In this document: positions 2,477 to 29,185 of the stretch, one piece after another
Layout of the letters: every line of letters starts with the position of its first letter
Numbering within the stretch: position 1 is the first letter of the stretch
From: an uncultured Bacteroidota bacterium
Lineage (GTDB): Bacteria > Bacteroidota > Bacteroidia > B-17B0 > Aurantibacillaceae
Assembly (NCBI GenBank): GCA_903928655.1
Contig: CAIYSA010000483.1
Coordinates: forward strand, 1-39,399
Direction of reading: 5' to 3'
Length of the DNA: 39,399 nt
The notes under the pieces: generated by a model
Seen by the model: the letters and a program-made list of their open reading frames with translations, nothing else
What the model was told of the DNA's origin: nothing
The model's database searches: none
Made by a program: the position numbers and the translations under genes

Positions 2477-2923
2477 ATGGAAATTATATTAAAACAAGAC
2501 CTTAAAGGGTTAGGATTTAAAAATGATATTGTTAAAGTTAAGAACGGATACGGTCGTAACTTTTTAATCCCTCAACGCATTGCAGTTTTGGCTACAGAAA
2601 GTAACAAAAAAATGCAAGCGGAAGAAATTAAACAAAGCTCATTTAAAGAACAAAAATTTAGAACTGGAGCTACCGAACTTGCTGCAAAACTTGCTGACGT
2701 AACTGTTAAAGTCGGAGCTAAAGCTGGAGAATCTGGAAAAATATTTGGTTCTGTTACGAATATACAGTTAGCTGAAGCTTTGAAAAAAGCTGGTTATGAA
2801 GTAGAACGTAAAAACATTGAAATGAACGAAGATGCTATTAAAGCATTAGGCACTTATACTGCTAAAGTTCGTTTATTTAAAGAAATTACAGCTACAATTA
2901 ATTTTGAAGTAATAGCTGAATAA
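2477..2923 (+). CDS. rplI: 50S ribosomal protein L9
   Basis: MEIILKQDLKGLGFKNDIVKVKNGYGRNFLIPQ is the canonical L9 N-terminus; the supplied ORF starts at 2450, but the ATG at 2477 is the likely start. Confidence 0.96.
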   Translation: MEIILKQDLKGLGFKNDIVKVKNGYGRNFLIPQRIAVLATESNKKMQAEEIKQSSFKEQKFRTGATELAAKLADVTVKVGAKAGESGKIFGSVTNIQLAEALKKAGYEVERKNIEMNEDAIKALGTYTAKVRLFKEITATINFEVIAE

Positions 2924-2942
2924 TTTTAAAATTACTCTTTTT

Positions 2943-2974
2943 AAAAAACCTATCATTTATGATAGGTTTTTTTT
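2943..2974 (+). terminator. Rho-independent terminator after rplI
   Basis: cctatca-ttta-tgatagg stem followed by tttttttt. Confidence 0.85.
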
Positions 2975-3013
2975 ATGCTATCAAAAAAAAACATAACTTT
3001 AAAAAAAATTATT

Positions 3014-3325
3014 ATGGAAAATCAAGAAACTGAAAACCAACTAAACATTGAACTTTCTGAAGAAATAGCTGAAGGAATATATTCTAACCTTGCAATAATT
3101 ACTCATTCTCCAACTGAATTTGTTGTAGACTTTATCAGAGTCATGCCAGGAGTGCCAAAAGCAAAAGTTAAATCTCGTATCGTACTTACGCCTCAACACG
3201 CAAAGCGTTTAATGAAAGCTCTAGCAGATAACGTTCAACGTTTTGAGCAAATGCATGGTAAAATTAAAGATAGTGAAATGAACGCGCTTCCTTTAAATTT
3301 TGGCGGACCAACAGCACAAGCATAA
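3014..3325 (+). CDS. DUF3467-like protein
   Basis: SEEIAEGIYSNLAIITHSPTEFVVDFIRVMPGVPKAKVKSRIVLTPQHAKRLMKALADNVQRFE; the ORF opens at 2975 but ATG 3014 (MENQET) is the likely start. Confidence 0.8.
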   Translation: MENQETENQLNIELSEEIAEGIYSNLAIITHSPTEFVVDFIRVMPGVPKAKVKSRIVLTPQHAKRLMKALADNVQRFEQMHGKIKDSEMNALPLNFGGPTAQA

Positions 3326-3386
3326 ATAAAAAAGTAATTTCAAAACTATTACAAATCTTTTTTGTTAAAGCAGTAAACTATTATTA

Positions 3387-4400
3387 ATGAAACCAACTAC
3401 CGCTATTTTATTGCTTAATTTAGGTACGCCTGATAGTCCTAAAAAGGGCGATGTTCGAAGTTATTTAACTCAATTTCTGAACGACCCTCGTGTAATTGAT
3501 ATTCCTTGGTTAGCTCGTACAATATTAGTAAATGGAATAATAGTTCCATTTCGATCCGGGAACTCATCTAAATTATATAAAGCAATTTGGGACGATAAAA
3601 CAGGCTCTCCATTATTAATGCATAGCCAAAATTTAGCTGAAAAATTACAAGATGAAGTTGGCTCTGAATACAAGGTTGAATTAGCAATGCGTTACAAAAA
3701 CCCAAGCATGGAAAGTGTTTTGGCGCGAATGAAAAAAGAAGGTTATCATAAAATCATAATTTTCCCATTATTTCCACAATACGCATCAAGTAGTACTGGT
3801 AGTGCATTACAATTAGCTATGGAAATCATAAGTAAGTGGTGGGTAATACCAGAATTAAAAATTATTTCACAATATTATACAAATTCAGATTACATTAATT
3901 GTATTGTTAACAGAGCAAAACAACACAATTTAAACGATTATGAACACATTGTTTTTAGCTATCATGGTTTGCCTGAAAGACAAGTTGATAAAGTTTATGA
4001 AGATGGGTATTTATGCAAAGATCATAATTGCGAAACCGAAAATAATGATACTAATTATTTTTGTTACAAATCAGCGTGTTATAAAACAACAGAAATGGTT
4101 GTAAAGCAATTAAATATTCCAAAAGAAAAATACACACTCTCCTTTCAAAGCAGATTAGACAATAAATGGTTGACTCCTTTTAGTGATAAAGTTATTGAGG
4201 ATTTAGGAAAAAAAGGAATAAAAAATATTTTGGTTTTTTCACCAGCATTTACAGCAGATTGCCTTGAAACCATATATGAAATTGGAATTGAATATCAAGA
4301 AATTTTTCATAAAAATGGCGGCCATAAAATTCAACTTGTTGAAAGTTTAAATAGCGGCGATGATTGGGTAAAAACAGTTAAAAATATAGCGCTTAATTAA
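3387..4400 (+). CDS. hemH: ferrochelatase
   Basis: LLLNLGTPDSPKKGDVRSYLTQFLNDPRVIDIPW, FSYHGLPERQ, SFQSRLDNKWLTPF, FSPAFTADCLETIYEI. Confidence 0.95.
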   Translation: MKPTTAILLLNLGTPDSPKKGDVRSYLTQFLNDPRVIDIPWLARTILVNGIIVPFRSGNSSKLYKAIWDDKTGSPLLMHSQNLAEKLQDEVGSEYKVELAMRYKNPSMESVLARMKKEGYHKIIIFPLFPQYASSSTGSALQLAMEIISKWWVIPELKIISQYYTNSDYINCIVNRAKQHNLNDYEHIVFSYHGLPERQVDKVYEDGYLCKDHNCETENNDTNYFCYKSACYKTTEMVVKQLNIPKEKYTLSFQSRLDNKWLTPFSDKVIEDLGKKGIKNILVFSPAFTADCLETIYEIGIEYQEIFHKNGGHKIQLVESLNSGDDWVKTVKNIALN

Positions 4401-4473
4401 ATTTAAAAACTCTCATCTATACTATAGTTTCTGTTTTTACGTTTTATCAAAATAAACTATCTTAGAAATAGAT

Positions 4474-6204
4474 TTGAAACACTTCATTTTTTATATCCTT
4501 TGTTTTGCAAGTTCTTTTTTAGGCCTTGCACAATTTAAATATAAACTATTGGTTGTGAATACAGATAATGAACCAATTTTCAAAAAAATAAATTACAAAA
4601 AAGAATTTCAAAGCCTTACCCAATTAAATAAAGAGATTAATTCTATTTACATATCCCTTATTAATGAAGGTTATATTATTGCTAGTGTAGATAGCTTAAA
4701 ACATGATTCACTTAATTATACTGCCTATATATACGCAGGAAAAAAGCATGCTTGGCTAAATTTAGAATACAATAAAAACCAACAAGAAGTGATTACAAAA
4801 TTAGGATACAGTGAACATTTTTTTAGCAAACGCCCTTTTAAATACACAGAATTAGGTAACCTAATGGAAAAAATTGTTGTGTATTATGAGAATAACGGAT
4901 ATCCATTTGCATTAGCAAAACTAGATAGTATCCAGTTTGAAAACGAAAAAGTTTCTGCAAATTTAATTATAGAAAAAAATGTATTTATTAAACTTGATAG
5001 CCTTGTTTTAGAAGGTAATGTCATTGTAAATCAAAAATTTTTAAAAAGATATTTAAATATAAAAAATGGAATGCCATATAATGAAGAAACATTTAAAGAT
5101 GCATCTAAAAAACTAAAACAATTACCTTTTTTAAATGAAACTAAACCAGCTATTTTACGACTTACTGATAAACAAAATAAATTGTATTTATTTTTAGATA
5201 AAAAAAATGCTTCGCAATTTGATGGTATCGTAGGTATTTTACCAAACGACAAAGGGCAAACATTAATTACAGGCGACATAAAGATAAAACTTGTAAATTC
5301 TATAATTAAAAATGGAGAAACATTTGACCTAAATTGGCGAAGACTTCAAAGCCAAACTCAAGATTTAAAAGCAAGAATAATTTACCCGTATTTATTTGGC
5401 TTACCTGTAGGCGTTGATTATGCAATTAAACTTTATAAAAAAGACACCACATTTATTGATATAAATAATATTATTGGTTTTAATTATTACTACAGTGGCT
5501 TAAACCATATAAAAGCATTTTACAAACAAAGAAATGCTAATTTAATATCAACTAATGGCTTGACAAGTATAACAATACTTCCAGAATATGCGGATATTAC
5601 AACAAAAAGTTATGGTTTAGGTTTTGTTTTTGAAAAATTAGATTACAGATTTAATCCCAAAAAAGGAATCAGTTTTAATGCTCAAGGTTCAATAGGGAAT
5701 CGTCAAATAAAGAAAAATCCAAAAATAAATGATGTGGCTTATTCAACTGTTCAGCTAAAATCCTCCCAATATCAATTAGATGGAGAATTGATTGGATATT
5801 TTACATTACACAAAAATAACATTTTAAAAATATCAGCACAATTTGCTTCTCTTTTCGGAAACCAAATTTATAAAAACGAACTATTTAGAATTGGCGGATT
5901 AAGAACTTTAAGAGGATTTGACGAAGAAAGCATTTATACATCTACCTATATAATTCCAACTATTGAATACCGTTTTTTGTTTGAAAAAAATTCGAATATA
6001 TTTGTTTTTGCAGAAGGCGCTTGGTACGAAAACAATTCAAATAATAACTATGTTAATGACACTCCAATAAGCCTAGGCGCAGGAATTAATTTTGATACAA
6101 AAGCTGGCATCTTCAATTTGGGTTATGCAATTGGAAAACAAATGGGAAATACTTTTGATTTAAGAACAGGTAAAATACATGCCGGACTTACCGCCTTATT
6201 TTAA
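4474..6204 (+). CDS. Omp85/BamA-TamA-like outer membrane protein (TTG start)
   Basis: Signal peptide, POTRA-like N-terminal half, C-terminal beta-barrel with FRIGGLRTLRGFDEESIYTSTY (xRGF Omp85 motif). Confidence 0.75.
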   Translation: MKHFIFYILCFASSFLGLAQFKYKLLVVNTDNEPIFKKINYKKEFQSLTQLNKEINSIYISLINEGYIIASVDSLKHDSLNYTAYIYAGKKHAWLNLEYNKNQQEVITKLGYSEHFFSKRPFKYTELGNLMEKIVVYYENNGYPFALAKLDSIQFENEKVSANLIIEKNVFIKLDSLVLEGNVIVNQKFLKRYLNIKNGMPYNEETFKDASKKLKQLPFLNETKPAILRLTDKQNKLYLFLDKKNASQFDGIVGILPNDKGQTLITGDIKIKLVNSIIKNGETFDLNWRRLQSQTQDLKARIIYPYLFGLPVGVDYAIKLYKKDTTFIDINNIIGFNYYYSGLNHIKAFYKQRNANLISTNGLTSITILPEYADITTKSYGLGFVFEKLDYRFNPKKGISFNAQGSIGNRQIKKNPKINDVAYSTVQLKSSQYQLDGELIGYFTLHKNNILKISAQFASLFGNQIYKNELFRIGGLRTLRGFDEESIYTSTYIIPTIEYRFLFEKNSNIFVFAEGAWYENNSNNNYVNDTPISLGAGINFDTKAGIFNLGYAIGKQMGNTFDLRTGKIHAGLTALF

Positions 6205-6256
6205 ATTAAAAATATGAAATACTAAAATTTTTAGTTAAACTTGTGCGCTAATAAAA

Positions 6257-9200
6257 GTGAAATTATTTAAGGCCATAATACTGTTTCTGTTTTTGGGTTT
6301 ACATCATGTAAACGCACAAAAATTGAACTTACAAAAAATCTCAATTAAAGATGGTCTTTCACAATCAACAGTGAGACAAATTGAAAAAGATGACTTTGGT
6401 AATTTATGGTTAGCAACAGGATACGGCTTATCAAAATATAATGGTAAAACATTTGAAGTATTTACTACCTCTGATGGAATGCCAACAAACGAAATAACCA
6501 ATTTACTTTATTACAAAACCAACTTATTTATTGGTACTAAAAAAGGCTTATGTTTATTTGATGGGGCCAAAATAAACTACAATCCTCTTCTTCAAAAGAT
6601 TAAAGGAAATGTAAAAAAAATAATTCCTCATAATAATATAGTACATATTATTACAACACGTGGTTATTATTTACTTGATAATTCAAATTCAGAATTCAAA
6701 CTTGATTCTATCGCAATTCCATCAATTTTAGGACAAAATCCAACAGATGCAGAATTTGACGAGGATGGAAATTTATGGATTTCCACTTCAAAACACGGCA
6801 TTTACTTTATTGAAAACAATATATCAACTAAAATTCAAAAATTTAATTTAATACAAAATGCTAGTTCATCAACAACAATAAATAAAAAACTTACACGAAT
6901 CGCTAATTTCAACTCTACTAATTTGCTAAAAGGTAATGCGGTAATGTCCATTGAATTTGATGCAAATAAAAACTTACTTGTTAGTGATTGGGGAAATGGA
7001 ATTGCATTACTGAAATTTGATTTAAGCAACAGTGTATTTAATGCAGAATATATTGTGTTTGACAGTTTGGTAACTAATAATTTAAATGTTTTAAGGTATA
7101 CTAATATCCAAAGAGATAATGCAAATTCAATATACTTAGCAACAGACGGGTCTGGCTTTCTTAAAATTCCTTTGGATCAGAATACAAATGAAAATAATTA
7201 TAAAGCGAAGGATTTAAAAATAATTTATAGCAATAATGGTTTTTTTGGAAACAATCCTTTGTGCTTTTTAAAAGATGAATTTGAAAATCTTTGGGTTGGA
7301 ACTTTGAACGATGGATTAATATTAATTTCAGAAAATAGTTCGTTAAGCTACAAACAAAAAGATGGGCTTGAAGAAGAAAAAGTAATTTCAATTTATAACA
7401 CTTCAGACAGTGCAATTTGGCTAGGAACATACGGCGGAGGCGCGTTTAAATTTAAAAATAAAAAATTTACACGAAGTTTTTGGGATCAAGGAATTAGTGA
7501 ATCAATTATTAAATCAATTATTGAGGATGATTTTGGCAATGTTTGGCTAGGAACTTCAGGCGGTGGAATTAGTATTATTTCAAAAGAGAATTCAAAAAAA
7601 GAACTACAAGTATCTAAAGTAATCTCAGAAATAAATGATTTGCAATCCAATTTTGTAAACTACTTATATAAATCTAAAAACGGTGCAATTTGGGTTGGTT
7701 ATCAATCTCAAAACACCATTGATAGAATTGTATTAAACAAAGACCTTACATACACAATTACACATTTTCCAATTACAAATTTAAATACACTAAACGTTAC
7801 TTGCCTTTTAGAAGATGATGAACATGATATTTGGATTACAAGCAACGAAGGTGTTTGGAAATTAAAAACAATTAGTGGCAAAGTAGATAACGACCTCAGT
7901 ACATACAAAAACATTTTGTGCGCATCTAAAGACTGGAATGGTAATATTTGGCTAGGAAGTTCTGATGTTGGTATAATAATTTTAAAAAACAAATTAAGAT
8001 CAAGGTATTTCGACAACAATGCTTTAACAGAATTTGAAAAAATAAATACAACAAATGGACTAAATAGCAATAACATTAACACCATTTTGTTTTCAAAAGA
8101 TAAAGTTTGGATTGTTACAAATAATGGAATTAACGAAATCAAAATTGATACATACCTAAGTAAAATTATTGACATAAAATCACTAAGTGTAGGGCAAGCG
8201 TTTGCTTCTTATGACAATAAACCAAATAGCTCAATATTAGATAAAGAAAACAACTTATACATAGGGTCAGTTGATGGATTAACAGCATACAACACCGCTA
8301 ATTCGAATAATGAAGTTAAAAAAACAAGAATCCCTTTTGAGATTTTTATTAATAAAATTTTAATAGAAAATAAAATAATAGATTGGACAAACCCTGCAAA
8401 CTTTTCTGCAGGCGAATATTCTAACTTCAAATTCAATGAGTTTTTTAATTGGTATAAAATACCCAAAAATCTAGAACTAGATTATACTCATAATACCATT
8501 CAATTAATTCTAAATACAAATTCGATTTCAAATCAAAAACAAATTAATTACACTTATAAATTAATTGGATATGATAAAAAATGGAATATAGTTTTTAATT
8601 CAAACGAAATCACCTACAGAAACTTACCTGCTGGCGATTACATATTAGTTTTAAAAGCATCCTTAAGTAACGACTTTAGTAAATCGAAAGAATTTTCATA
8701 TCAATTTACAATTAAACCGCCCTTTTGGCAATCAACTTTATTTTATATCGTTATCACAATTTTAATTTTAATGATACTTTATTATTTAATTTTTACTCGT
8801 GAAACAAGAATGAAACGCGAAAAATTAAAATTAGAATTAATTGTAAAAGCTCGAACTGCGGATATTGAAAAGAAAAGTATTGAAATTGAATTACAAAACA
8901 CTTTAATACAAGGTATAAATAAAGACTTAACAGACAGTATAAAATACGCACAACGAATACAACAAACCATTTTGCCAGATACTAACTTACTTAATAATTA
9001 CTTTAGCGCAAATTTTGTTTTTTATAAACCACGTAACATTGTAAGCGGAGATTATTATTGGATTAAAGAAATTGATGGGCTCATTTACATAGCAGTTGTT
9101 GACTGCACTGGCCATGGTGTTCCCGGAGCTTTTATGTCACTTATTTCTAGTAATATTTTAAACGAGGGTTTAGATTTAAATTTAACCTTACACAACCCTG

Positions 9201-9676
9201 TTGCTATAATTGAACATTTGAGAAAACAAATCAAGCTAAAACTTACTACTAATAACAATGATCAAATTAACGATGGTTTAGATATTTCCCTTATCTGCTT
9301 CAATAAAGAAAAACAAATAATAGAATATGTAAATGCAAACAGACCGTTATACATTATATCAAACAATGAATTAACAACTATTCCTTCTGAGAACATTAGC
9401 ATTGGAGGGTTTGCCGACTTTAAAAAAGATATTCCATCAAAAACAATCTCTGTAAAAAAAGGAGATCAATTGTTTTTATTTACTGATGGAATTACTGATC
9501 AATTTGGCGGTATTAAAAACAAAAAGTATAATCCAACTCGTTTACGCCAATTTTTATTACTCAACAATCATTTACCATTGCCTAAACTAAACGCAAAATT
9601 AAAAAACGAAATTACTGAGTGGCAAGGCAGTTATGATCAAACTGACGACATCCTTCTGATTGGTTTAACCATTTAA
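6257..9676 (+). CDS. Two-component-regulator-type propeller + Y_Y_Y + TM + SpoIIE/PP2C phosphatase (GTG start)
   Basis: Repeated GNLWLATGYGLSKYNG / IWLGTYGGGAFKF blades; NYTYKLIGYDKKWN...TYRNLPAGDYILVLKAS (Y_Y_Y); TM near residue 840; SGDYYW, DCTGHGVPGAFMS, FTDGITDQFGG, DQTDDILLIGL (PP2C/SpoIIE). Confidence 0.9.
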   Translation: MKLFKAIILFLFLGLHHVNAQKLNLQKISIKDGLSQSTVRQIEKDDFGNLWLATGYGLSKYNGKTFEVFTTSDGMPTNEITNLLYYKTNLFIGTKKGLCLFDGAKINYNPLLQKIKGNVKKIIPHNNIVHIITTRGYYLLDNSNSEFKLDSIAIPSILGQNPTDAEFDEDGNLWISTSKHGIYFIENNISTKIQKFNLIQNASSSTTINKKLTRIANFNSTNLLKGNAVMSIEFDANKNLLVSDWGNGIALLKFDLSNSVFNAEYIVFDSLVTNNLNVLRYTNIQRDNANSIYLATDGSGFLKIPLDQNTNENNYKAKDLKIIYSNNGFFGNNPLCFLKDEFENLWVGTLNDGLILISENSSLSYKQKDGLEEEKVISIYNTSDSAIWLGTYGGGAFKFKNKKFTRSFWDQGISESIIKSIIEDDFGNVWLGTSGGGISIISKENSKKELQVSKVISEINDLQSNFVNYLYKSKNGAIWVGYQSQNTIDRIVLNKDLTYTITHFPITNLNTLNVTCLLEDDEHDIWITSNEGVWKLKTISGKVDNDLSTYKNILCASKDWNGNIWLGSSDVGIIILKNKLRSRYFDNNALTEFEKINTTNGLNSNNINTILFSKDKVWIVTNNGINEIKIDTYLSKIIDIKSLSVGQAFASYDNKPNSSILDKENNLYIGSVDGLTAYNTANSNNEVKKTRIPFEIFINKILIENKIIDWTNPANFSAGEYSNFKFNEFFNWYKIPKNLELDYTHNTIQLILNTNSISNQKQINYTYKLIGYDKKWNIVFNSNEITYRNLPAGDYILVLKASLSNDFSKSKEFSYQFTIKPPFWQSTLFYIVITILILMILYYLIFTRETRMKREKLKLELIVKARTADIEKKSIEIELQNTLIQGINKDLTDSIKYAQRIQQTILPDTNLLNNYFSANFVFYKPRNIVSGDYYWIKEIDGLIYIAVVDCTGHGVPGAFMSLISSNILNEGLDLNLTLHNPVAIIEHLRKQIKLKLTTNNNDQINDGLDISLICFNKEKQIIEYVNANRPLYIISNNELTTIPSENISIGGFADFKKDIPSKTISVKKGDQLFLFTDGITDQFGGIKNKKYNPTRLRQFLLLNNHLPLPKLNAKLKNEITEWQGSYDQTDDILLIGLTI

Positions 9677-9693
9677 TTATCTCTTAGGATAAT

Positions 9694-11742
9694 ATGGCAA
9701 GCTTTAAATCAATTCCTTTATTAAAAATAATATTCCCTTACCTACTCGGTATACTATTTGTATTGCAATTTGGAATATTACCAGCAACAGCAAAATGGTT
9801 TGTTATATCAACTATTTTTGTTTTAATAACATTTATCGTTTACTATTTAGCGAAAAACAAAACGGGTTTCAAAAAAATAATTTATATTATTTCAATCAAT
9901 GTATTTTTATTTATTCTTGCTCACCAATCTTTCTATTTATACAATGCTAAAAACGATTTAACGAACTACACAAACTATGTAAGTTCCAAACAACAACAAT
10001 CTGTTGTGGTTATATCAGAAGTGCCAGTAGTAACTGAGAAGGGACTTAAATTAGCGGTAAACTTAAAATATATTAATGCTAATTCAAAATGGAAAACTAC
10101 AACTGGTAAAACCATTATTTACTTAAAAAAAGATTCATTAAATACCTATAACGTTGGCGATTATTTATTTTTAAATACAAAGTGGAGCTATATTACTGAA
10201 CCAAAAAATCCAAATGAATTTAATTATAAACGGTATTTAGAAAACAAAAATATTTTTAATATCATTTATTCTGATTCGAAACATGTACTAAAATACAATG
10301 GATTTGGCACGGACGATTCATATATTTTGATTGGCGAAAAAATTAAATCCAAAATAGTAATTAGTTTAAGAAACAGCAATTTGTCAGAGAATGCCTTTTC
10401 AATTTGCTCTGCATTATTAGTGGGCTTCGACGATGAAATTAATAAAGATGTACTAACAAGTTTTTCGCATTCGGGCACATTACACATTCTTTCTGTTTCA
10501 GGAATGCATACAGGCGTTATTTGTGGAATTATTTTATTTATTTTTTCATATTTAGATAAAAACGATAAGCATAAAAAAATAAAATGTGTAGTAATTATTA
10601 CAGTATTATTTTTATTTACAACTATTACCGGATTTTCACCCTCAGTTCTTAGAGCGAGTTTAATGCTAAGCTTAATTGTTTTAGGAAAAACATTTCAAAA
10701 ACAAAGTAATAGCTATAATACGTTATTACTTTCTGCATTCATTTTATTGGTCGTAAATCCGTTATTAATTATTGATGTTGGTTTTCTACTAAGTTATTTC
10801 GCGGTATTTGGCATCATGTATTTATTCCCAATTTTAGATTCTCTTTTTTATGTAGAAAACAAAATTTTAAAGTGGTTTTGGAGTAGTTGTTTAATTTCAA
10901 TAGCCGCAACCATTTTTACCTTACCAATTACACTTTACTTTTTTCATCAATTCCCTATTTGGTTTGTGTTTTCAAATTTAGTAATCATTCCAATTAGCTT
11001 ACTCGTTATGCTCTTTGCATTATGTGTAGTTGTATTTACAAAAGTAATTTTTTTAAAATCACTGTTTGTAGTAATTACAAATGCTACCGTGTCAATTATG
11101 ATCTATCTATCAAACCTTACTGATAATGCCCATTACGGTTATATCGATTATATATCTTTTGGTAAACTAGATGTTCTGTTTTTAAGTTTCCTAATAGTAT
11201 CAGTGCTGATATTAATTTCTAATAAACAATATAATTACTTTATGACTAGTTTATCCATTTGCATAGCATGGATATTTTTAACAATCGCACAAAATTATAC
11301 GCAATTAAAACAACACGAATTAATTGTATTTAACGTGAAACAAAAATCTTTTTTTGCCACTCGTATTGGAAACAACGTGTATTGTGATTTAAACAAAATT
11401 ACTAAATCTGATTTTGAACGTTATATAAAACCCTATTTACTAAGCTACAAAAAACTTACACTCATTGATTCCAAAAAACAATGCATCACTATAAATAACC
11501 GTACTTTTATAAACTTAACAAGCACTAAAGATTCGCCCCCTAAAATTGATGTTAACTTTATTTTAATAAGCAATAATTCATTAGTAAATTTAACTGATTT
11601 TAAAGATTCAAAACCTTTAATAATTGTAGATGGCAGCAACACTTACAAAACCATTACTAAATTAAAAAAACAATGTGCAAGCAATCATTTAAAATTTTAC
11701 AATGTAAAAGAAAATGGTGCATTGATTTTAAATGCTTATTAA
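9694..11742 (+). CDS. comEC: ComEC/Rec2-family protein
   Basis: DUF4131-like N-terminus; GFDDEINKDVLTSFSHSGTLHILSVSGMHTGVICG and GFSPSVLRASLM motifs; many TM helices. Confidence 0.85.
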   Translation: MASFKSIPLLKIIFPYLLGILFVLQFGILPATAKWFVISTIFVLITFIVYYLAKNKTGFKKIIYIISINVFLFILAHQSFYLYNAKNDLTNYTNYVSSKQQQSVVVISEVPVVTEKGLKLAVNLKYINANSKWKTTTGKTIIYLKKDSLNTYNVGDYLFLNTKWSYITEPKNPNEFNYKRYLENKNIFNIIYSDSKHVLKYNGFGTDDSYILIGEKIKSKIVISLRNSNLSENAFSICSALLVGFDDEINKDVLTSFSHSGTLHILSVSGMHTGVICGIILFIFSYLDKNDKHKKIKCVVIITVLFLFTTITGFSPSVLRASLMLSLIVLGKTFQKQSNSYNTLLLSAFILLVVNPLLIIDVGFLLSYFAVFGIMYLFPILDSLFYVENKILKWFWSSCLISIAATIFTLPITLYFFHQFPIWFVFSNLVIIPISLLVMLFALCVVVFTKVIFLKSLFVVITNATVSIMIYLSNLTDNAHYGYIDYISFGKLDVLFLSFLIVSVLILISNKQYNYFMTSLSICIAWIFLTIAQNYTQLKQHELIVFNVKQKSFFATRIGNNVYCDLNKITKSDFERYIKPYLLSYKKLTLIDSKKQCITINNRTFINLTSTKDSPPKIDVNFILISNNSLVNLTDFKDSKPLIIVDGSNTYKTITKLKKQCASNHLKFYNVKENGALILNAY

Positions 11743-14380: not shown

Positions 14381-14584
14381 ATGAAAGCCTTAAAGATTAT
14401 TTCTGGAGTATTATTATTTATAATAGGACTCGGTCAATTAATAAAAATAATATTGATATATACTGAACTTCCATTTAAGTCTTGGGCAATAGGTTCCGAA
14501 TTTGTACCTATTGGCTTTATTGTTGCGGGAATTGCAATTTTTATTAATGGAATAAAACGAACAAAAGAAATCCCTAAACCTTAG
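14381..14584 (+). CDS. Small hypothetical membrane protein
   Basis: 67-aa ORF with two TM segments; 3' end overlaps the convergent gene by 11 nt. Confidence 0.45.
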   Translation: MKALKIISGVLLFIIGLGQLIKIILIYTELPFKSWAIGSEFVPIGFIVAGIAIFINGIKRTKEIPKP

Positions 14585-15635
14585 CCACCAACATAAACGA
14601 ATAATTTATTCCTAAATATTGGTTGATGATTAAAACATGTTTAATGGCTGTTGGTGCTTTTTGAGAAATAGATATAGCTTTTGGTAGGTTTTGTTTTTCA
14701 ATTAATTGAGTGGCTAACCATAAGGCAAAAGCAGAAGCCGTGTGGTATTCGCCACTTAAATGTTTAAAATAGGCAGGGCAACTTTCTTTTTCAATAGTTG
14801 GCAAAAGCTCTTGTAATTTTTTATCAAAGTTTACATCTAAACTAAAGCCCATAAGCGTTACATCAATATCGGCTAACGTTAAACTATACATTTTTAAAAA
14901 TGCAGTCAGTTTATCCAAAATATCTTCAGTAGTTTTTGGTTTGTAAAGCGTTTGTATGCCTTCTACGCAAGCTACTGATTTTTCCGTTTGGTGTTTATTC
15001 AAAACAAAAAACGCAGCGCCTTCACCCATTTGTGTGCCTGATGTTTCTGATTTCCAATATGGCACAGCAGTGTTTTGTTCTTGAAACTTTTTTGCTCTAC
15101 GGTATAAATTCACATAGTTTGGTGTGTGCTCTTCAATGCCACCAATCAAAATAGATTCTTTGCCTTCGTTAAATAACATCATGGCATCTTGCAAACAACT
15201 CTCAAAAGAAAAACCACGATGCACATACGTGAAATTATAATTATGGCATTTCATAATTAAAGCAATTTGAGAACCAACCGTGTTGTGTGTAGATTGTATA
15301 AAAGAAGTTGGTGTTAAAAATTGCTCATCATTATTTAATAAGGCTAATAAAAAACGTTCGCTGTCTTCAAAACAACCCAAACCTGTTCCGGTAATAATAG
15401 CATCTACATTTGTTACACCAGCATTTTTAATGGCAATGCTAGCGGTGGTAACACCCATTTTTATAGCTCTTCCCATTCGGCGAAGTAAATTGGGCGCAAT
15501 GTATTCTTTATAAGATGGTTCAATCGCATTATAATAATCAACACTTGGCGGCGCAACGGTTTCAAAAAACCATGACTCGTCAATGGTGTTTTGTGCCGAA
15601 ATGCAACCTGTTCCGTTTATGTATGCTTTAACCAA
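14574..15635 (-). CDS. Ketosynthase-like protein lacking catalytic residues (chain-length-factor-like)
   Basis: KS-like N-terminus (INGTGCISAQ, VTNVDAIITGTGLGCFEDSE), ILIGGIEE, GEGAAFFVL; the nucleophile region reads YVHRGFSFES instead of TACSS and the HGTGT motif is absent. Confidence 0.8.
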   Translation of the reverse strand: MVKAYINGTGCISAQNTIDESWFFETVAPPSVDYYNAIEPSYKEYIAPNLLRRMGRAIKMGVTTASIAIKNAGVTNVDAIITGTGLGCFEDSERFLLALLNNDEQFLTPTSFIQSTHNTVGSQIALIMKCHNYNFTYVHRGFSFESCLQDAMMLFNEGKESILIGGIEEHTPNYVNLYRRAKKFQEQNTAVPYWKSETSGTQMGEGAAFFVLNKHQTEKSVACVEGIQTLYKPKTTEDILDKLTAFLKMYSLTLADIDVTLMGFSLDVNFDKKLQELLPTIEKESCPAYFKHLSGEYHTASAFALWLATQLIEKQNLPKAISISQKAPTAIKHVLIINQYLGINYSFMLVAKV

Positions 15636-15641
15636 ACTAAA

Positions 15642-16835
15642 TTATATTTTTTTAAAAATAAGAGATGAACAATTTCCTCCAAAACCAAATGAGTTTGAAA
15701 GGATAGTGTTTATAGGTGTTTGCAACAACTCCGTAACCGGCACTAGATTAGTTTCTGCTATGGGTGTTGTAAAATTTAAATTCGGAAATATTAATTGGTG
15801 TTGTAATGATAAGGTTGAAATAACAGCTTCAATACTTGCCGCTGCTGCTAAAGTATGGCCAGTAAAGGCTTTGGTTGAACTAAATTTTGGAATGTGATTT
15901 CCAAAAACAGTTTTGGTGGCAATGCTTTCCGACAAATCATTATTTGGTGTTCCAGTACCATGCATGTTGATGTAATCAATGTCGCGGGTTGTTAAGCCAC
16001 ACATTTCTAAAGCTTGTGTAATGGCTAATGTTGCGCCGTAACCTTCGGGCGATGAAGCCGTTTGGTGATACGCATCATTTGCATTGGCATAACCAATAAC
16101 TTCAGCCAAGGCTTTTCCATTTCTTTTACGTAATGCGTCTTCGCCTTCTATGACTAAAAATGCAGCGCCTTCTCCTAAGTTTAATCCTTTTCTGTTTTCA
16201 TCAAATGGTTTGCACCATTCTTTATCTAAAATCATTAAGGTATTAAATCCATTAAATGTAAATTTTGATAAAGCATCCACACCACCAACAATAGCTCTAT
16301 CAAGCAATCCGTTTTTTATCATTCTACTGCCAAGCATCACAGCGTTAGCAGCCGATGAACACGCTGTTGAAATGGTAGTTACATAATCTACATTACCAAT
16401 ATAATCTGCAATGCGTTCTGTGCTATCGCCACAATCGTGCGTGTCTAATACATTTAAGTGATCGTCTTTTTCAAACATTTCTTTATAAAACATTTCTGTT
16501 TTACTCATGCCTGCAACTGTTGTAGATGAAATAACACCAGTACGCAAACCATCCTTCGTGTCAATACCCGAATTGATAACGGCTTCTTTAGCGGCTAACA
16601 TTGCCAAATACGAATTACGGTTTAAATCAGGAGAATTGTCTTTTACCAAATCCATTAAATCAGCATTTGATAATTTAACTTCTCCTACTAAAAACTCGTC
16701 TTTATAACGCGTGGTTAAATAATTAATTTTACCAATACCAGTTTTGGATTGACTTAAAGACAAAAAAGATTCAGACACATTGTTTCCAATAGCCGAAATC
16801 ATTCCTATTCCAGTAATATAAATGCGTTGCGACAA
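15642..16835 (-). CDS. beta-ketoacyl-ACP synthase II (FabF-like)
   Basis: ISTACSSAANAV (Cys), NMHGTGTPNNDLSE (His), KAFTGHTLAAAASIEA (His), NSFGFGGNCSSLIF. Confidence 0.93.
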   Translation of the reverse strand: MSQRIYITGIGMISAIGNNVSESFLSLSQSKTGIGKINYLTTRYKDEFLVGEVKLSNADLMDLVKDNSPDLNRNSYLAMLAAKEAVINSGIDTKDGLRTGVISSTTVAGMSKTEMFYKEMFEKDDHLNVLDTHDCGDSTERIADYIGNVDYVTTISTACSSAANAVMLGSRMIKNGLLDRAIVGGVDALSKFTFNGFNTLMILDKEWCKPFDENRKGLNLGEGAAFLVIEGEDALRKRNGKALAEVIGYANANDAYHQTASSPEGYGATLAITQALEMCGLTTRDIDYINMHGTGTPNNDLSESIATKTVFGNHIPKFSSTKAFTGHTLAAAASIEAVISTLSLQHQLIFPNLNFTTPIAETNLVPVTELLQTPINTILSNSFGFGGNCSSLIFKKI

Positions 16836-16844
16836 AATGATTCC

Positions 16845-17102
16845 TTACGATTTACCGTTAGCTTTAATGTATTCTGCCATCGTTCTAAGCGATTGAAAAA
16901 TTGTTTTTCCATCTTTAGGATCTTCAATTTTAATGCCGTAATGTTTTTCTAATAAAACAATTAACTCTAAAGCGTCAATAGAATCTAAACCTAAACCGTC
17001 TCCAAATAAAGGAGAATCAGGATTAATTTCTTCTGGTTTAACTTCAGCTAAATTTAATTGCTCAATGATTTGTCCTTTTAATTTTTCTATTAATGCGTCC
17101 AT
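16845..17102 (-). CDS. Acyl carrier protein
   Basis: GDGLGLDSIDALELIVLLEKHYGIKI: phosphopantetheine Ser in the DSIDALEL motif; 85 aa. Confidence 0.92.
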   Translation of the reverse strand: MDALIEKLKGQIIEQLNLAEVKPEEINPDSPLFGDGLGLDSIDALELIVLLEKHYGIKIEDPKDGKTIFQSLRTMAEYIKANGKS

Positions 17103-17737
17103 TATGTTTGATTATATATTTGTGTAACAACTAGTTGATTAAGAGGTTTAAAAATAGTGTTTTTATTTGTATTATTTTTTGTTTCAACTAAAAAAATAAA
17201 CGCTTCATAAGCAGTATCATCAACCTCAACCCAACCGCAAATAGCAGAAGAAGCATTGTCATGTAAAACAAGTTCCGTATAATTTACTAGTAAATGGGCA
17301 TCAAATTTTTTAGAAACAAAAAAAGCATTTTCCCCCGTCACTTTATGCCTAATGGCAAGTTCGCCAATACTGATATTTGGAAGGGTATAAACAAAAACAG
17401 CTGGTGATGGAAAATAATTGGTTTTATCGTCAATCGAATGTTGATGTAATTTATCCGTTTGCAAACTCGAAGCCGAATTTGAAATTACGATGGCCGTTTT
17501 AGTCAAATCATTTTCAGAAATAAAAGCAGTGTTTTGTAAAGCAAACTCCGTACACAAAAAACCTAATTTGCATTGCAAATCCATTTTATGAAACTTTGGA
17601 TAGCTAATTTCCATTGACTTGTAGGCTTCAGATAAAAATTCGGGAAGTGTGGCATTTTTTTCAGAACTAAACACTGGCGTTCCGTTTATTGAAACAGAAT
17701 TATTTTTTATATGTGCGTACGAAATGATATTGTTCAT
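17102..17737 (-). CDS. KS-like half protein (N-terminal thiolase-fold-like), probably non-catalytic
   Basis: TAIVISNSASSLQTD...YFPSPAVFVYTLPNISIGELAIRHKVTGENAFFVSKKFDA resembles the first half of a ketosynthase; TAATG overlaps with both neighbours. Confidence 0.65.
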   Translation of the reverse strand: MNNIISYAHIKNNSVSINGTPVFSSEKNATLPEFLSEAYKSMEISYPKFHKMDLQCKLGFLCTEFALQNTAFISENDLTKTAIVISNSASSLQTDKLHQHSIDDKTNYFPSPAVFVYTLPNISIGELAIRHKVTGENAFFVSKKFDAHLLVNYTELVLHDNASSAICGWVEVDDTAYEAFIFLVETKNNTNKNTIFKPLNQLVVTQIYNQT

Positions 17738-18870
17738 TATATTTTAGAAAATAAAGCTGCTGCATTACAACCTCCAAAACCAGAAGCCGTTTTTATAAAC
17801 GATTGAAATGATTTTTTTTCAAATGAATCAATCACTGAAATTTTCCCAGAAACACCAAGGCTTTCGAAGCCTTCCGATTTAATCAAGGTTTGATTTTTTA
17901 AAGATTCTAAAGATAAAATAGTTTCTAAAACTCCTGCAGCACCAAGTGTGTGTCCATAATATCCTTTTAAACTATTTACCGGAACACCTGATAATTCAGC
18001 TCGTTCGATAGCAATAGATTCCATCTCATCATTAAATGGTGTAGCTGTTCCATGTGCCGAAATAAAACCTATGTCAGTTTTGTTTGTCACATTTAATTGA
18101 TTTAAACATTGAAACAATCCATCACCCGTGCGTGATGGCCCCGAAATATGATTGGCATCATTTGCTGAAAAGCCACTAATGATTTGGGCTTCATAAGGTT
18201 TTGCTAATTCTTTATTATTGGTAATTAAAATGGTTGAAACAGCTTCGCCTAAATTAATCCCAACTCTATTGGTATCAAACGGCTTACTGGGCTCATTACT
18301 TAAGGCGTTAAATGATTTAAAACCGCTCAACGTAAATTCAGATAAAATATCGCCACCACAAACAATCACGTTATTGTAAGCACCACTTTCTATATAACGC
18401 TTAGCTATGATTATGGCTAAAAGGCCAGATATACAAGCGTTTGACAAAACAACTGGAGTATGTTTAAAATTAAAATGCTGTTGTAATACATTTGCAAAAC
18501 TCCACAAATAGATTCTATTTTTATCAATAGCTGAGAAATTATTTTTTTCTAATAAATCAATATTTCCTTTAGTGGTTGAATAGATTAATAATGTTTTTTC
18601 GTCAGCAGGATTAACGCCACTTTGAGCCATCACATCTTGTATAGATAATATACTGAGTTGTTCGAGCTTTGTGTAGTAATCTGTATTTTCAATGCTTGAG
18701 AAACGATTTTTTAAAAGTGTTTCGTCAATTTTTGCAACACAAAAGGTTTCAATAGAAAATGGTAAGATTGTTTTTTTTACAGCAAGCTCCGAATTTAAAA
18801 TGGCATTATAATTTTCGTCAGTAGAAAATCCTAAACCACTTATAATATTATTGTAAGACGCAAAAACCAT
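17737..18870 (-). CDS. beta-ketoacyl synthase
   Basis: LSNACISGLLAII (Cys), SAHGTATPFNDEMES (His), LKGYYGHTLGAAGVLE (His), ASGFGGCNAAALF. Confidence 0.9.
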   Translation of the reverse strand: MVFASYNNIISGLGFSTDENYNAILNSELAVKKTILPFSIETFCVAKIDETLLKNRFSSIENTDYYTKLEQLSILSIQDVMAQSGVNPADEKTLLIYSTTKGNIDLLEKNNFSAIDKNRIYLWSFANVLQQHFNFKHTPVVLSNACISGLLAIIIAKRYIESGAYNNVIVCGGDILSEFTLSGFKSFNALSNEPSKPFDTNRVGINLGEAVSTILITNNKELAKPYEAQIISGFSANDANHISGPSRTGDGLFQCLNQLNVTNKTDIGFISAHGTATPFNDEMESIAIERAELSGVPVNSLKGYYGHTLGAAGVLETILSLESLKNQTLIKSEGFESLGVSGKISVIDSFEKKSFQSFIKTASGFGGCNAAALFSKI

Positions 18871-21961: not shown

Positions 21962-23341
21962 GTGGCTGCAATTAACATTCCCGATAAAGAAGTAAAAGAC
22001 GCATTTTACAAATCAACTGAGCGCTTTCACATCATTGCGTGCTGGGTTGGCATTGTACTTAACCTCATTTGGTTTGCCAGCGATTATTTTGTAGTTCCTG
22101 ATTATTGGCTTCCGTTTTTGATTTTCAGAATTACTATTTCTGGTATTACTGTATTAGCTTTAATTCTAAAGCAACGATTAAAAATCAGTATTTACTTTTG
22201 CGTATTTGTTCTAGTACTTGGTATTTCTATACAAAACGCTTATATGTGGAGCGTAATGGATTTAGCTCATCTTCAAAAACACACCTTTGCATATATTGCC
22301 CTTTTTATAGGCGTTGGTATGCTTGTGTTGTGGGACATTAAATTGTCAATCATTATTTTAATTGCAACTATTATAAGTAACATTATATTTTATAAAATTA
22401 ATAGCACACTTACTATTGATGAGTTTTTAATAAACGGAGGCTTGTTAACCCTTTCTGTTGCTGTGTTTTGCGTTTTTTTAATAAGAACACGATACCGATT
22501 AACTTTAAACGAAATTCGTATTAGGTTGGAACTAGCAAAATCAAAAGAAATCATTGAAGAAAAACATGAAGAAGTACTACTTCAAAAAAAAGAAATCACA
22601 GATAGTATAAATTATGCGCGAAGCATTCAGCGTGCATTTATACCTACCGAAGAACAATTTAACTCATCCTTTAAAGATAGCTTTGTATATTTTAAACCAA
22701 AAGATATTGTTAGTGGCGATTTTTATTGGGCTTATCAAAAAGATAATTTACTGTTTTATGCCACTGCAGATTGTACTGGCCATGGCGTACCTGGTGGGTT
22801 TATGACGATGTTAGGCTTGTCTTTTTTAGATGATATTATTGAAAGTAAGGCCACAACAAATCCTGCATCTGCTTTAAATTTAATTAGAGATAAAATAGTT
22901 AATACGCTGAAGCAAAGCGGAAACATTGGTGAAAACAAAGATGGAATGGACATCGCCATTTGTTGTATTGATAAAACAAAAAACGAATTGACATACTCGT
23001 CGGCAAATAACTCCCTTTATATGATTAGAGATAACGAACTCACTATTTATAAAGGAGATAAGCAGCCTTGTGGTTTTTACCATGAGAACAAACCATTCAC
23101 GGCACATACAATTTCTTTAAAGCCTAACGATTGCATCTATACATTTACAGACGGTTTTGCAGATCAGTTTGGAGGGCCAAAGGGAAAAAAATTCAGATAC
23201 AAACAGTTTGAAGAAATATTACTTAATAATGTGAACGATTCATTTTCTGTTCAAAAAAACAAATTGTCTTCTGCTTTTGAATCGTGGAAAGGCGATTTAG
23301 AGCAGGTTGATGATATATTAGTAATTGGGATAAAAATTTAA
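21962..23341 (+). CDS. Multi-TM membrane SpoIIE/PP2C phosphatase (GTG start)
   Basis: N-terminal hydrophobic helices, coiled-coil linker DSINYARSIQRAFIP, then VSGDFYWAY, DCTGHGVPGGFMTML, FTDGFADQFGGPKGKKF, EQVDDILVIGI. Confidence 0.88.
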   Translation: MAAINIPDKEVKDAFYKSTERFHIIACWVGIVLNLIWFASDYFVVPDYWLPFLIFRITISGITVLALILKQRLKISIYFCVFVLVLGISIQNAYMWSVMDLAHLQKHTFAYIALFIGVGMLVLWDIKLSIIILIATIISNIIFYKINSTLTIDEFLINGGLLTLSVAVFCVFLIRTRYRLTLNEIRIRLELAKSKEIIEEKHEEVLLQKKEITDSINYARSIQRAFIPTEEQFNSSFKDSFVYFKPKDIVSGDFYWAYQKDNLLFYATADCTGHGVPGGFMTMLGLSFLDDIIESKATTNPASALNLIRDKIVNTLKQSGNIGENKDGMDIAICCIDKTKNELTYSSANNSLYMIRDNELTIYKGDKQPCGFYHENKPFTAHTISLKPNDCIYTFTDGFADQFGGPKGKKFRYKQFEEILLNNVNDSFSVQKNKLSSAFESWKGDLEQVDDILVIGIKI

Positions 23342-27188: not shown

Positions 27189-27935
27189 ATGATTAGGATA
27201 TTTAAATTTTTACCAGTTACAATTATTTATGCGTTAAGTATCATTTGTACTTGCGTATTTACAAACGGGCTAATTCTTGCTATATCACTAACTGTATTAA
27301 CTATTTTGTTTTCAATTTTTCAATTTTTTGGCGCCTATTTAATTGGGCTAAACTTTCATGTAAATTCCGTTAATTCACTTGATACAATTGACAAAAAAGT
27401 AATGTTAACCTTTGATGATGGGCCTTATCATTCAACATTAAGCGTTTTGGAAGTTCTAAAAAAAAACCAAGTGAATGCTCTGTTTTTTTTAATCGGGAAA
27501 AACATAAATGACAATGAATACATTGTAAAACAAATTATTGATGACGGCCATTCTATTGGTAATCATAGCTTTTCTCACCATTTTTGGTTTGATATTTGGA
27601 GCACAAAAAAAGTTATTACCGACATAGCGCAATGCCAAGAAATAATTGAAAAATACCAGCCTAATAAAAATTTATTTAGGCCGCCATATGGCGTTACGAA
27701 TCCAAATATTGCTAGAGCACTAAAAAAATTAGGATTAAAATCAATTGGTTGGAATATTAGAAGTTACGATACATCTATAAAAGATATTGAAAAAATAAAT
27801 GTGCGAATTTTATCTCAGTTAAAACCTGGCGCCATTATCTTATTGCATGATAGATTGGATTTTATGCCTGAATTACTGGAAAAACTCATTCCTGCAATAA
27901 AACAAAAAGGATATGAGTTTACTTCTCAAATATAA
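27189..27935 (+). CDS. Polysaccharide deacetylase family protein (NodB)
   Basis: VMLTFDDGPYHSTLSVLEVLKKNQVNALFFLIGKN, DGHSIGNHSFSHH, FRPPYGVTNPN, GAIILLHDR. Confidence 0.93.
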   Translation: MIRIFKFLPVTIIYALSIICTCVFTNGLILAISLTVLTILFSIFQFFGAYLIGLNFHVNSVNSLDTIDKKVMLTFDDGPYHSTLSVLEVLKKNQVNALFFLIGKNINDNEYIVKQIIDDGHSIGNHSFSHHFWFDIWSTKKVITDIAQCQEIIEKYQPNKNLFRPPYGVTNPNIARALKKLGLKSIGWNIRSYDTSIKDIEKINVRILSQLKPGAIILLHDRLDFMPELLEKLIPAIKQKGYEFTSQI

Positions 27936-27976
27936 AATAACTTAAATCGAAATTTTAATACTTTTGTTTTCTCATT

Positions 27977-29185
27977 ATGATCAGCGAAATGGAAAAAAAA
28001 TTAATCATAAAACAACAGTTTAAAAAATTAAAATGTTGTGTGTTAATTCCTACGTACGATAATGAAAAAACTATAGAGCAAGTTATACACTCAACCTTTG
28101 AATATTGTGATGACGTTATAGTTATTAATGATGGCTGCACAGATTCGACCGTAGATATTTTAAAAAAATTTCCAGATTTAATTGTTATTAATCACCCAAT
28201 AAATAAAGGTAAGGGGCTTGGGTTAAGAAATGGATTTGCAAAAGCAGTTGAGTTAGGTTTTGATTACGCAATTAGTATAGACAGCGACGGGCAAAACTTT
28301 CCAAGTGATTTTGAAAAATTCTTAACTAAAATTGAGCAAGAGCCTGGTAGTTTAATTATTGGAGCAAGAAATATGACAACTGAAAACGTGCCAACTAAAA
28401 GTACATTTGGCAATAAATTCAGTAATTTTTGGTTTTGGGCAGAAACAGGCATTTCATTACCAGACACACAAAGTGGTTTTAGATTATACCCTGTTCAACG
28501 ATTAAAAAAAATATGGTTATTTACAACCAAATTTGAATTAGAAATTGAAGTAATTGTAAAAGCTGCCTGGCGCGGAATAACAGTAACATCGATTCCTGTA
28601 GGTGTTTTCTATGCTCCACCTGGCGAACGAATTTCTCACTTTAAACCTAGCGTTGATAGCACACGTATCAGTTTTTTAAACACCTATTTAGTAATACTAG
28701 CCGCACTTTTTTGGCGTCCAGTTATGCTTGTTAGAAGTATGACAATAAAAAACTTTAAAAAAACTTGGCAAAATGAAATTGTTGCAGCTCACGAAAGTGC
28801 AGAAAAAAAAGCCCTTTCGGTGGCTGTAGGTTTGTTTTTTGGCATCGTCCCCATTTGGGGTTTTCAGTTTGGATTAGCAATATTATCAGCAGTCTATTTT
28901 AAATTAAATAAATTTATTGTTGGCTTATCGGCACAAATTAGCTTTCCTCCTTTAATTCCTTTAGTATTATATTTTAGTGTAAAAACTGGCGAATTCTTTT
29001 TAAATGAAAATGTTCACATAAGTTTAGATAAATTACTTAGTATAGAAAACTTAAAACAAACCATGTCAAATTTATACGTCTACTTTATTGGAGCTACAAT
29101 TTTATCAATATTAATGGCAGTTGCAGGGTTTATTGTTACTTGGATAGCTTTAAAACTAGTTGGATATAAACACAAATCGAATTAA
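27977..29185 (+). CDS. Glycosyltransferase family 2 fused to DUF2062
   Basis: CVLIPTYDNEKTIEQVI...VINDGCTDSTVDIL...SIDSDGQNFP (GT2); C-terminal KKALSVAVGLFFGIVPIWGFQFGLAILSAVYFKLNKFIVGLSAQISFPPLIPLVLYFSVKTGE (DUF2062). Confidence 0.88.
   Translation: MISEMEKKLIIKQQFKKLKCCVLIPTYDNEKTIEQVIHSTFEYCDDVIVINDGCTDSTVDILKKFPDLIVINHPINKGKGLGLRNGFAKAVELGFDYAISIDSDGQNFPSDFEKFLTKIEQEPGSLIIGARNMTTENVPTKSTFGNKFSNFWFWAETGISLPDTQSGFRLYPVQRLKKIWLFTTKFELEIEVIVKAAWRGITVTSIPVGVFYAPPGERISHFKPSVDSTRISFLNTYLVILAALFWRPVMLVRSMTIKNFKKTWQNEIVAAHESAEKKALSVAVGLFFGIVPIWGFQFGLAILSAVYFKLNKFIVGLSAQISFPPLIPLVLYFSVKTGEFFLNENVHISLDKLLSIENLKQTMSNLYVYFIGATILSILMAVAGFIVTWIALKLVGYKHKSN

What the first reader, a model, noticed from the sequence alone, without database searches (positions are those of the whole stretch)
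14574..15635. KS paralog lacking catalytic residues, chain-length-factor-like
Both neighbouring KSs keep Cys-His-His (TACSS/NACIS, HGTGT/HGTAT, GHT). In this protein the nucleophile region reads YVHRGFSFESC, the first His motif is replaced by LMGFSLDVNFD, and only an EYHTASAF-like His remains. An active KS beside a dead KS recalls KS-CLF heterodimers of type II PKS and aryl-polyene systems.
Basis: partly seen in the sequence, partly recalled or inferred. Interest (0 to 1): 0.6.

Follow-up and report, generated by a model that had tools for sequence, protein, structure and literature searches.

The report
Chain-length-factor subunit for flexirubin pigment
This gene most likely makes the catalytically dead partner of a neighbouring enzyme that together build the polyene chain of a flexirubin-type yellow-orange bacterial pigment; the pigment genes are known, but this one has been listed simply as another synthase.

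Summary
ORF 14574-15635 (-), 353 aa, is a ketosynthase (KS) homologue without the catalytic residues. The Cys site is Gly141; the first His is gone; the second His site is Glu296.
It is the last gene of a tight five-gene operon: KS1, a 211-aa half-KS, ACP, KS2, this protein. The same order occurs in most of 80 Bacteroidota loci, inside flexirubin clusters; it probably corresponds to FlxO. The host genome also has TAL, KR, DarA, DarB, dehydratase and exporter genes on other contigs.
Its closest solved relative is ApeC, the chain length factor (CLF) of the aryl-polyene KS-CLF heterodimer ApeO-ApeC. Its partner is most likely KS2 (15642-16835): the two occur in exactly the same 21 of 41 genomes, are adjacent in 77 of 80 loci, duplicate as a pair, and are fused in one genome. 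KS1 has its own partner, the half-KS; three natural KS1/half-KS fusions and a confident model (pTM 0.93) support that.
The direct structural test of the KS2:CLF heterodimer was inconclusive (pTM 0.55). Verdict: the CLF reading is well supported; interest moderate.

The parts
14574..15635 (-). CLF353: KS-fold protein without catalytic Cys/His/His; proposed chain length factor (probable FlxO equivalent, by gene order)
15213..15215 (-). Gly141 codon, the position of the catalytic Cys in active KSs
   Evidence: profile alignment; residue counts
14748..14750 (-). Glu296 codon, the position of the second catalytic His (GHT)
15642..16835 (-). KS2: active ApeO-type ketosynthase (C159, H292, H327), proposed partner of CLF353 (probable FlxN equivalent)
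   Evidence: natural KS2-CLF fusion in L087
16845..17102 (-). Acyl carrier protein, NCBIfam PRK09184 (above cut-off), GLDSIDAL attachment motif
17102..17737 (-). half211: 211-aa half-KS without Cys; proposed half-size CLF-like partner of KS1
   Evidence: natural KS1-half211 fusions in L079, L080, L108
17737..18870 (-). KS1: second active ApeO-type ketosynthase (C146, H273, H307)
27189..27935 (+). Polysaccharide-deacetylase-like gene; relatives carry its homologue directly after CLF353 (FlxP position)
27977..29185 (+). GT2 + DUF2062 protein, same domain pair as the glycosyltransferase in the Chitinophaga-type flexirubin cluster

Best explanation
The protein is the chain length factor of a highly reducing type II polyketide synthase that makes the aryl-polyene part of a flexirubin-type pigment. 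It pairs with the adjacent active ketosynthase KS2. KS2's Cys-His-His would do all decarboxylative condensations on malonyl-ACP; the dead subunit would complete the dimer, cap the shared substrate tunnel (limiting chain length) and help dock the ACP through its invariant Arg52-Arg53. Shown here: loss of catalytic residues, ApeC-type relationship, strict partnership of KS2 and CLF genes, flexirubin gene context. Inferred: physical heterodimer, tunnel capping, chain-length control, ACP docking, and the pigment itself.
For: Catalytic residues absent in 96 relatives while both KS neighbours keep them in all homologues. Best PDB relative of the family profile is ApeC 6QSP_B, E 1.8e-10; 7F28_A, AntE (6SMO_C) and the CLF part of PfaC (6RIW) also match. 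Shared signatures with ApeC: RR(M/L), (T/S)PT.F..S.HN, SF(E/Q); Arg52 and Arg53 are 96/96, and the paper PMC8358021 proposes the equivalent ApeC Args for ACP contact. Tree: CLF353 with EcApeC, KS1 and KS2 with EcApeO. KS2 and CLF353 occur in the identical 21 of 41 genomes and are adjacent in 77 of 80 loci. One natural 763-aa KS2-CLF fusion (L087) and pairwise tandem duplications in L081, L099, L105 and L127. Context: DarA, DarB-like KSIII, TAL, KR, KS, ACP, dehydratase and exporter elsewhere in the genome, matching flxA-flxY/dar of Chitinophaga pinensis (PMC3992019).
Against: The window KS2-CLF pair folded as one chain gave pTM 0.55 and low confidence at the expected interface loops, so no heterodimer was shown. 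ApeC is half-size; this protein keeps a full second lobe. Two loci (L101, L128) have the CLF gene without KS2 next door. The ApeC grouping joins two long branches, and hhalign probability to E. coli ApeC alone was 88%. Pigment production by this organism is unknown.
Confidence: 0.85

Rival explanations
1. CLF353 pairs with KS1 (17737-18870) instead of, or as well as, KS2.
For: KS1 is also an ApeO-type active KS in the same operon.
Against: KS1 has its own partner: three natural KS1-half211 fusions, none with CLF353, and a confident fused model (pTM 0.93) whose best PDB match is the PfaC KS-CLF. KS2-CLF occurs without KS1-half211 (G035; L045), and the two duplicate as KS2-CLF units.
Confidence: 0.06
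2. CLF353 is a homodimeric enzyme with a different activity, for example a KSQ-like malonyl-ACP decarboxylase that supplies starter units.
For: It keeps a full KS fold, and Lys291, Gly295 and Glu296 are almost invariant, so the old active-site region is still under constraint.
Against: KSQ-type decarboxylases (own knowledge) carry a conserved Gln at the Cys site and keep His; here the Cys site varies (G/A/S/V/T/N/D) with no Gln, and both His are lost. Flexirubin starts from tyrosine-derived coumarate (PMC3992019), and an aromatic amino acid lyase gene is in the genome.
Confidence: 0.05
3. It is a decaying paralogue of KS2 on its way to loss.
For: All catalytic residues are gone and the C-terminal lobe shrinks in some relatives (313 aa in L046, 294 aa in L047).
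Against: dN/dS 0.04-0.10, no stops inside any orthologue, presence locked to KS2 in 21/21 genomes, many invariant positions.
Confidence: 0.01

Closest known systems
ApeC (CLF of the aryl-polyene ApeO-ApeC complex; PDB 6QSP, 7F28)
   Same: Best PDB match of the family profile (E 1.8e-10); no catalytic Cys; shared RR, (T/S)PT.F..S.HN and SF(E/Q) motifs; partner is an ApeO-type KS; same broad kind of polyene pathway.
   Different: 353 aa with two thiolase-like lobes instead of about 205-240 aa with one; gene sits directly after its KS partner rather than far away; starter pathway is tyrosine-derived coumarate.
FlxO (with FlxN) of the Chitinophaga pinensis flexirubin cluster (PMC3992019)
   Same: By gene order before the deacetylase FlxP, probably the same gene; the cassette with deacetylase, LolA, dehydratase, GT2 and exporter recurs in Chitinophaga-labelled MAG loci L072/L073.
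   Different: The paper lists FlxO as a putative beta-ketoacyl synthase and shows no function. I did not compare with the C. pinensis DSM 2588 sequence itself. In the window's genome the pathway is scattered over several contigs.
Full-length CLFs of actinomycete type II PKSs (Act CLF 1TQY, ishigamide Iga12) and AntE (6SMO_C)
   Same: Two-lobe KS fold, no catalytic Cys, encoded beside its KS; AntE is a weak profile match (E 2.3e-4).
   Different: No conserved Gln at the Cys position; belongs with the ApeC branch; Bacteroidota.
PfaC KS-CLF (6RIW)
   Same: Natural one-chain KS-CLF; CLF part is a weak profile match; L087 has an analogous KS2-CLF fusion.
   Different: PfaC is a large fatty-acid-type PKS; here the subunits are normally separate genes.

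Membership tests
Chain length factor of a type II PKS (general) | KS-fold paralogue lacking the catalytic Cys and His residues | tested here: met
   Gly141 at the Cys site, Glu296 at the second His, no His in the first motif; 96 relatives
Chain length factor of a type II PKS (general) | Encoded with, and dependent on, an active KS partner | tested here: met
   Identical presence in 21/41 genomes; adjacent in 77/80 loci; fused in L087; duplicated as a pair
Chain length factor of a type II PKS (general) | Forms a heterodimer with the KS | tested here: inconclusive
Chain length factor of a type II PKS (general) | Sets product chain length | not testable with these tools
   Needs in vitro reconstitution or mutants
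ApeC-type (aryl polyene) CLF | Sequence relationship to ApeC above other KS/CLF chains | tested here: met
   6QSP_B best of 41 PDB matches, E 1.8e-10; tree (long branches)
ApeC-type (aryl polyene) CLF | Conserved Arg-Arg surface pair proposed to contact ACP | tested here: met
   Arg52-Arg53 invariant in 96/96, aligned with the RR of ApeC (PMC8358021)
ApeC-type (aryl polyene) CLF | Half-size, one thiolase lobe, as in the solved ApeC structures | tested here: not met
   353 aa with both lobes in the model. A feature of known ApeC, not of CLFs in general; so filed as an ApeC-related full-length CLF, not as ApeC
Actinomycete aromatic type II PKS CLF | Gln at the Cys position | tested here: not met
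   G/A/S/V/T/N/D/C at position 141, no Gln
Active KAS I/II ketosynthase | Cys-His-His triad | tested here: not met
Flexirubin (flx/dar) pathway | TAL, KR, DarA, DarB, dehydratase, exporter present in the genome | tested here: met
   TAL/KR/KS/ACP/acyltransferase on C50, DarA C281 (60% identity), DarB-like C51, dehydratase C508 (37%), exporter C40 (48%)
Flexirubin (flx/dar) pathway | Pigment is produced | not testable with these tools
   Organism known only as a draft genome here

The most novel reading that the evidence does not exclude
The flexirubin polyene synthase uses two separate KS-CLF heterodimers encoded in one operon: KS2 with a full-length ApeC-like CLF (this protein), and KS1 with a half-size 211-aa CLF-like protein. 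The pairs would divide the elongation of the polyene, or serve different acyl chains of the pigment.
Probability: 0.6. Interest if true: 0.55.

Novelty: new member of a known kind. Interest (0 to 1): 0.38.

Why it matters
Flexirubins are a long-used marker pigment of Bacteroidota, but in the papers found here the elongation enzymes of their polyene synthase are only lists of 'putative ketosynthases'. Assigning KS2/CLF and KS1/half-KS pairs makes the pathway directly reconstitutable and testable. A full-length relative of ApeC, with shorter members of 313 and 294 aa, also suggests how the half-size ApeC could have arisen from an ordinary CLF.

Tried and rejected
Structural heterodimer test: KS2 and CLF353 are in one frame with a single TAA between them, so the pair was folded as one chain; pTM 0.55 and Foldseek to PfaC KS-CLF at TMq 0.46, rmsd 21.5 A. 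Treated as inconclusive, because the 3-residue linker may block docking and no second attempt was allowed; the natural L087 fusion would have been the better query. KSQ-like decarboxylase and decaying-paralogue readings were rejected on residue variability and dN/dS. half211 has no sequence match in the PDB by single-sequence search and only weak profile similarity to CLF353 (E 0.001), so its exact ancestry is open. My first count of residues said the Cys site is never Cys; the full count shows one (L105). One search fetched a broad E. coli CFT073 stretch to reach the aryl-polyene cluster; it also contained a gene annotated as an enterotoxin, which was not read or used; one search took the pigment cluster region and its sequence alone was used.

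Full report
OBSERVATION. The ORF at 14574-15635 (-) is real: 353 aa, TTG start, lying 6 bp after the stop codon of the upstream ketosynthase. It is a ketosynthase homologue by Pfam (ketoacyl-synt 27.2 bits, Ketoacyl-synt_2 26.9 bits, both above cut-off). Orthologues at 64-76% identity occur in 16 other genomes of the genus and family, with no internal stops. Close pairs give dN/dS 0.04-0.10, against 0.03-0.05 for KS2, so it is a functional gene.

CATALYTIC SITE. In profile alignment the KS2 nucleophile Cys159 aligns with Gly141. Over 96 relatives that position is G46, A28, S14, V2, T2, N2, D1, C1; the single Cys is in one copy of a tandem duplicate (L105) that still lacks the His residues. The first His motif (HGT) is replaced by a G-x-(N/S/D)-G pattern. 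The second (GHT) is replaced by G-E-(Y/F): Glu296 is E90/D6. Lys291 and Gly295 are invariant. KS1 and KS2 keep Cys, His, His and Lys in every homologue examined (79 and 91 sequences).

OPERON. The genes run KS1 (17737-18870), half211 (17102-17737), ACP (16845-17102), KS2 (15642-16835), CLF353, with overlaps or gaps of 9 bp or less. The ACP passes the curated cut-off of PRK09184. half211 is a 211-aa protein matching only the N-terminal half of FabF-type enzymes, with no Cys at the nucleophile position.

RELATIVES. A scan of species genomes gave 562 encoded relatives; the 80 best kept are from Flavobacterium, Aquimarina, Maribacter, Zobellia, Arenibacter, Chitinophaga-labelled and other Bacteroidota MAGs, and two Chlorobi MAGs. 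In 63 of 80 the order is exactly KS1-half211-ACP-KS2-CLF353. KS2 is immediately upstream of CLF353 in 77 of 80; of the other three, L094 is at a contig end and L101 and L128 are true exceptions. Among 41 genomes near the window, CLF353 and KS2 occur in exactly the same 21; half211 is in 20 of these. KS2-CLF pairs therefore exist without half211 (G035), but not the reverse in this sample.

PARTNERS. One locus (L087) has KS2 and CLF353 fused in one 763-aa ORF. Three loci (L079, L080, L108) have KS1 and half211 fused (580-604 aa). Four loci carry two tandem KS2-CLF353 pairs. No KS1-CLF353 fusion was seen. Together these point to KS2:CLF353 and KS1:half211 as the working pairs.

STRUCTURE. The natural KS1-half211 fusion from L079 was modelled with pLDDT 91 and pTM 0.93. 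Its best PDB match is the one-chain KS-CLF of PfaC (6RIW; TMq 0.73 over 766 columns), against about 0.57 for single KS chains: it adopts a KS-CLF-like pseudo-dimer. The window's KS2 and CLF353, read as one chain through the single TAA between them, gave pLDDT 82.5 but pTM 0.55, and the arrangement did not match PfaC. The folds of both halves are clear, with all the KS strands and helices of both lobes in CLF353, but the dimer was not resolved. I count this as inconclusive.

WHAT IT IS RELATED TO. A profile of 15 CLF353 sequences finds ApeC (6QSP_B, E 1.8e-10) as its best solved relative, then FabF-type KSs, a second ApeC-sized chain (7F28_A), AntE (6SMO_C) and the CLF part of 6RIW. [quoted passage not shown] The corresponding Arg52-Arg53 are invariant in 96 of 96 here. 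In a maximum-likelihood tree CLF353 groups with E. coli ApeC, and KS1 and KS2 group with ApeO; the ApeC and CLF353 branches are long, so I lean on the shared motifs as well. CLF353 keeps a complete second lobe. Related proteins of 313 aa (L046) and 294 aa (L047) have a shortened one, which suggests, without proving, stepwise truncation towards ApeC.

PATHWAY. PMC3992019 describes the C. pinensis flexirubin cluster flxA-flxY, with FlxC, FlxI, FlxL, FlxN and FlxO as putative ketosynthases and a polysaccharide deacetylase in flxP-flxU. In most relatives of the window a deacetylase follows CLF353 directly, so CLF353 is probably FlxO and KS2 FlxN; this is an inference from order, not a sequence comparison. 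In the window the deacetylase and a GT2-DUF2062 gene are 12 kb away (27189-29185). Elsewhere in the same genome are TAL, KR, a further KS, ACP and acyltransferase (C50), DarB-like KSIII and BtrH-like genes (C51), DarA (C281), a dehydratase (C508) and an exporter (C40). Contigs C50, C51 and C281 carry unrelated genes on both sides, so the pathway is genuinely dispersed. PMC8253772 reports that in the Xenorhabdus aryl-polyene system ApeR initiates and ApeO-ApeC elongates; by analogy the C50 KS may initiate here and KS2:CLF353 elongate.

MECHANISM. Most likely KS2 performs every condensation and CLF353 completes the dimer, lines and closes the polyene tunnel and helps dock the ACP. The loss of catalytic residues in CLF353, its ApeC relationship and its gene-level tie to KS2 are shown. 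The heterodimer, tunnel and chain-length role are inferred. The role of KS1:half211 (a second elongating pair, or one for another acyl chain) is open.

NOVELTY. Within the papers searched, only one combined 'flexirubin' with 'chain length factor', and the passages read there do not assign one to flexirubin synthesis; the library lacks most subscription journals. The genes and pathway are known; the subunit assignment and the second KS/half-KS pair appear new. I rate it a new member of a known kind, moderate interest.

Noticed in passing
17102-17737 (-): A 211-aa half-ketosynthase without Cys, probably a half-size CLF-like partner of KS1; naturally fused to KS1 in L079, L080 and L108, with a confident pseudo-dimer model.
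   Followed up: yes
G000 contigs C50, C51, C281, C508, C40 (L057, L058, L146, L147, L141): Flexirubin-type genes (TAL, KR, KS, ACP, acyltransferase, DarA, DarB, BtrH-like, dehydratase, exporter) are scattered over several contigs instead of one cluster; the loci carry unrelated flanking genes.
   Followed up: partly
L081, L099, L105, L127: Tandem duplication of the KS2-CLF353 pair as a unit in Bacteroidales-type MAGs: two KS-CLF pairs of the same type side by side.
   Followed up: no
L046 (G035:C44) 2750-10334: A smaller cluster with a tryptophan-halogenase-like FAD protein, a DUF1702 protein, KR, ACP, KS2-like, a short 313-aa CLF and a FabA-like dehydratase: possibly a halogenated relative of the pathway without KS1 and half211.
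   Followed up: partly
L126: A Flavobacterium-like flexirubin locus in a record titled Bifidobacterium breve MAG: probably a mislabelled or contaminated bin.
   Followed up: no
window 6257-9676 and 21962-23341 (+): Two proteins share a C-terminal stretch (YAQRIQQ / VDCTGHGVPGAFM-like) resembling SpoIIE-type phosphatase domains; not analysed.
   Followed up: no
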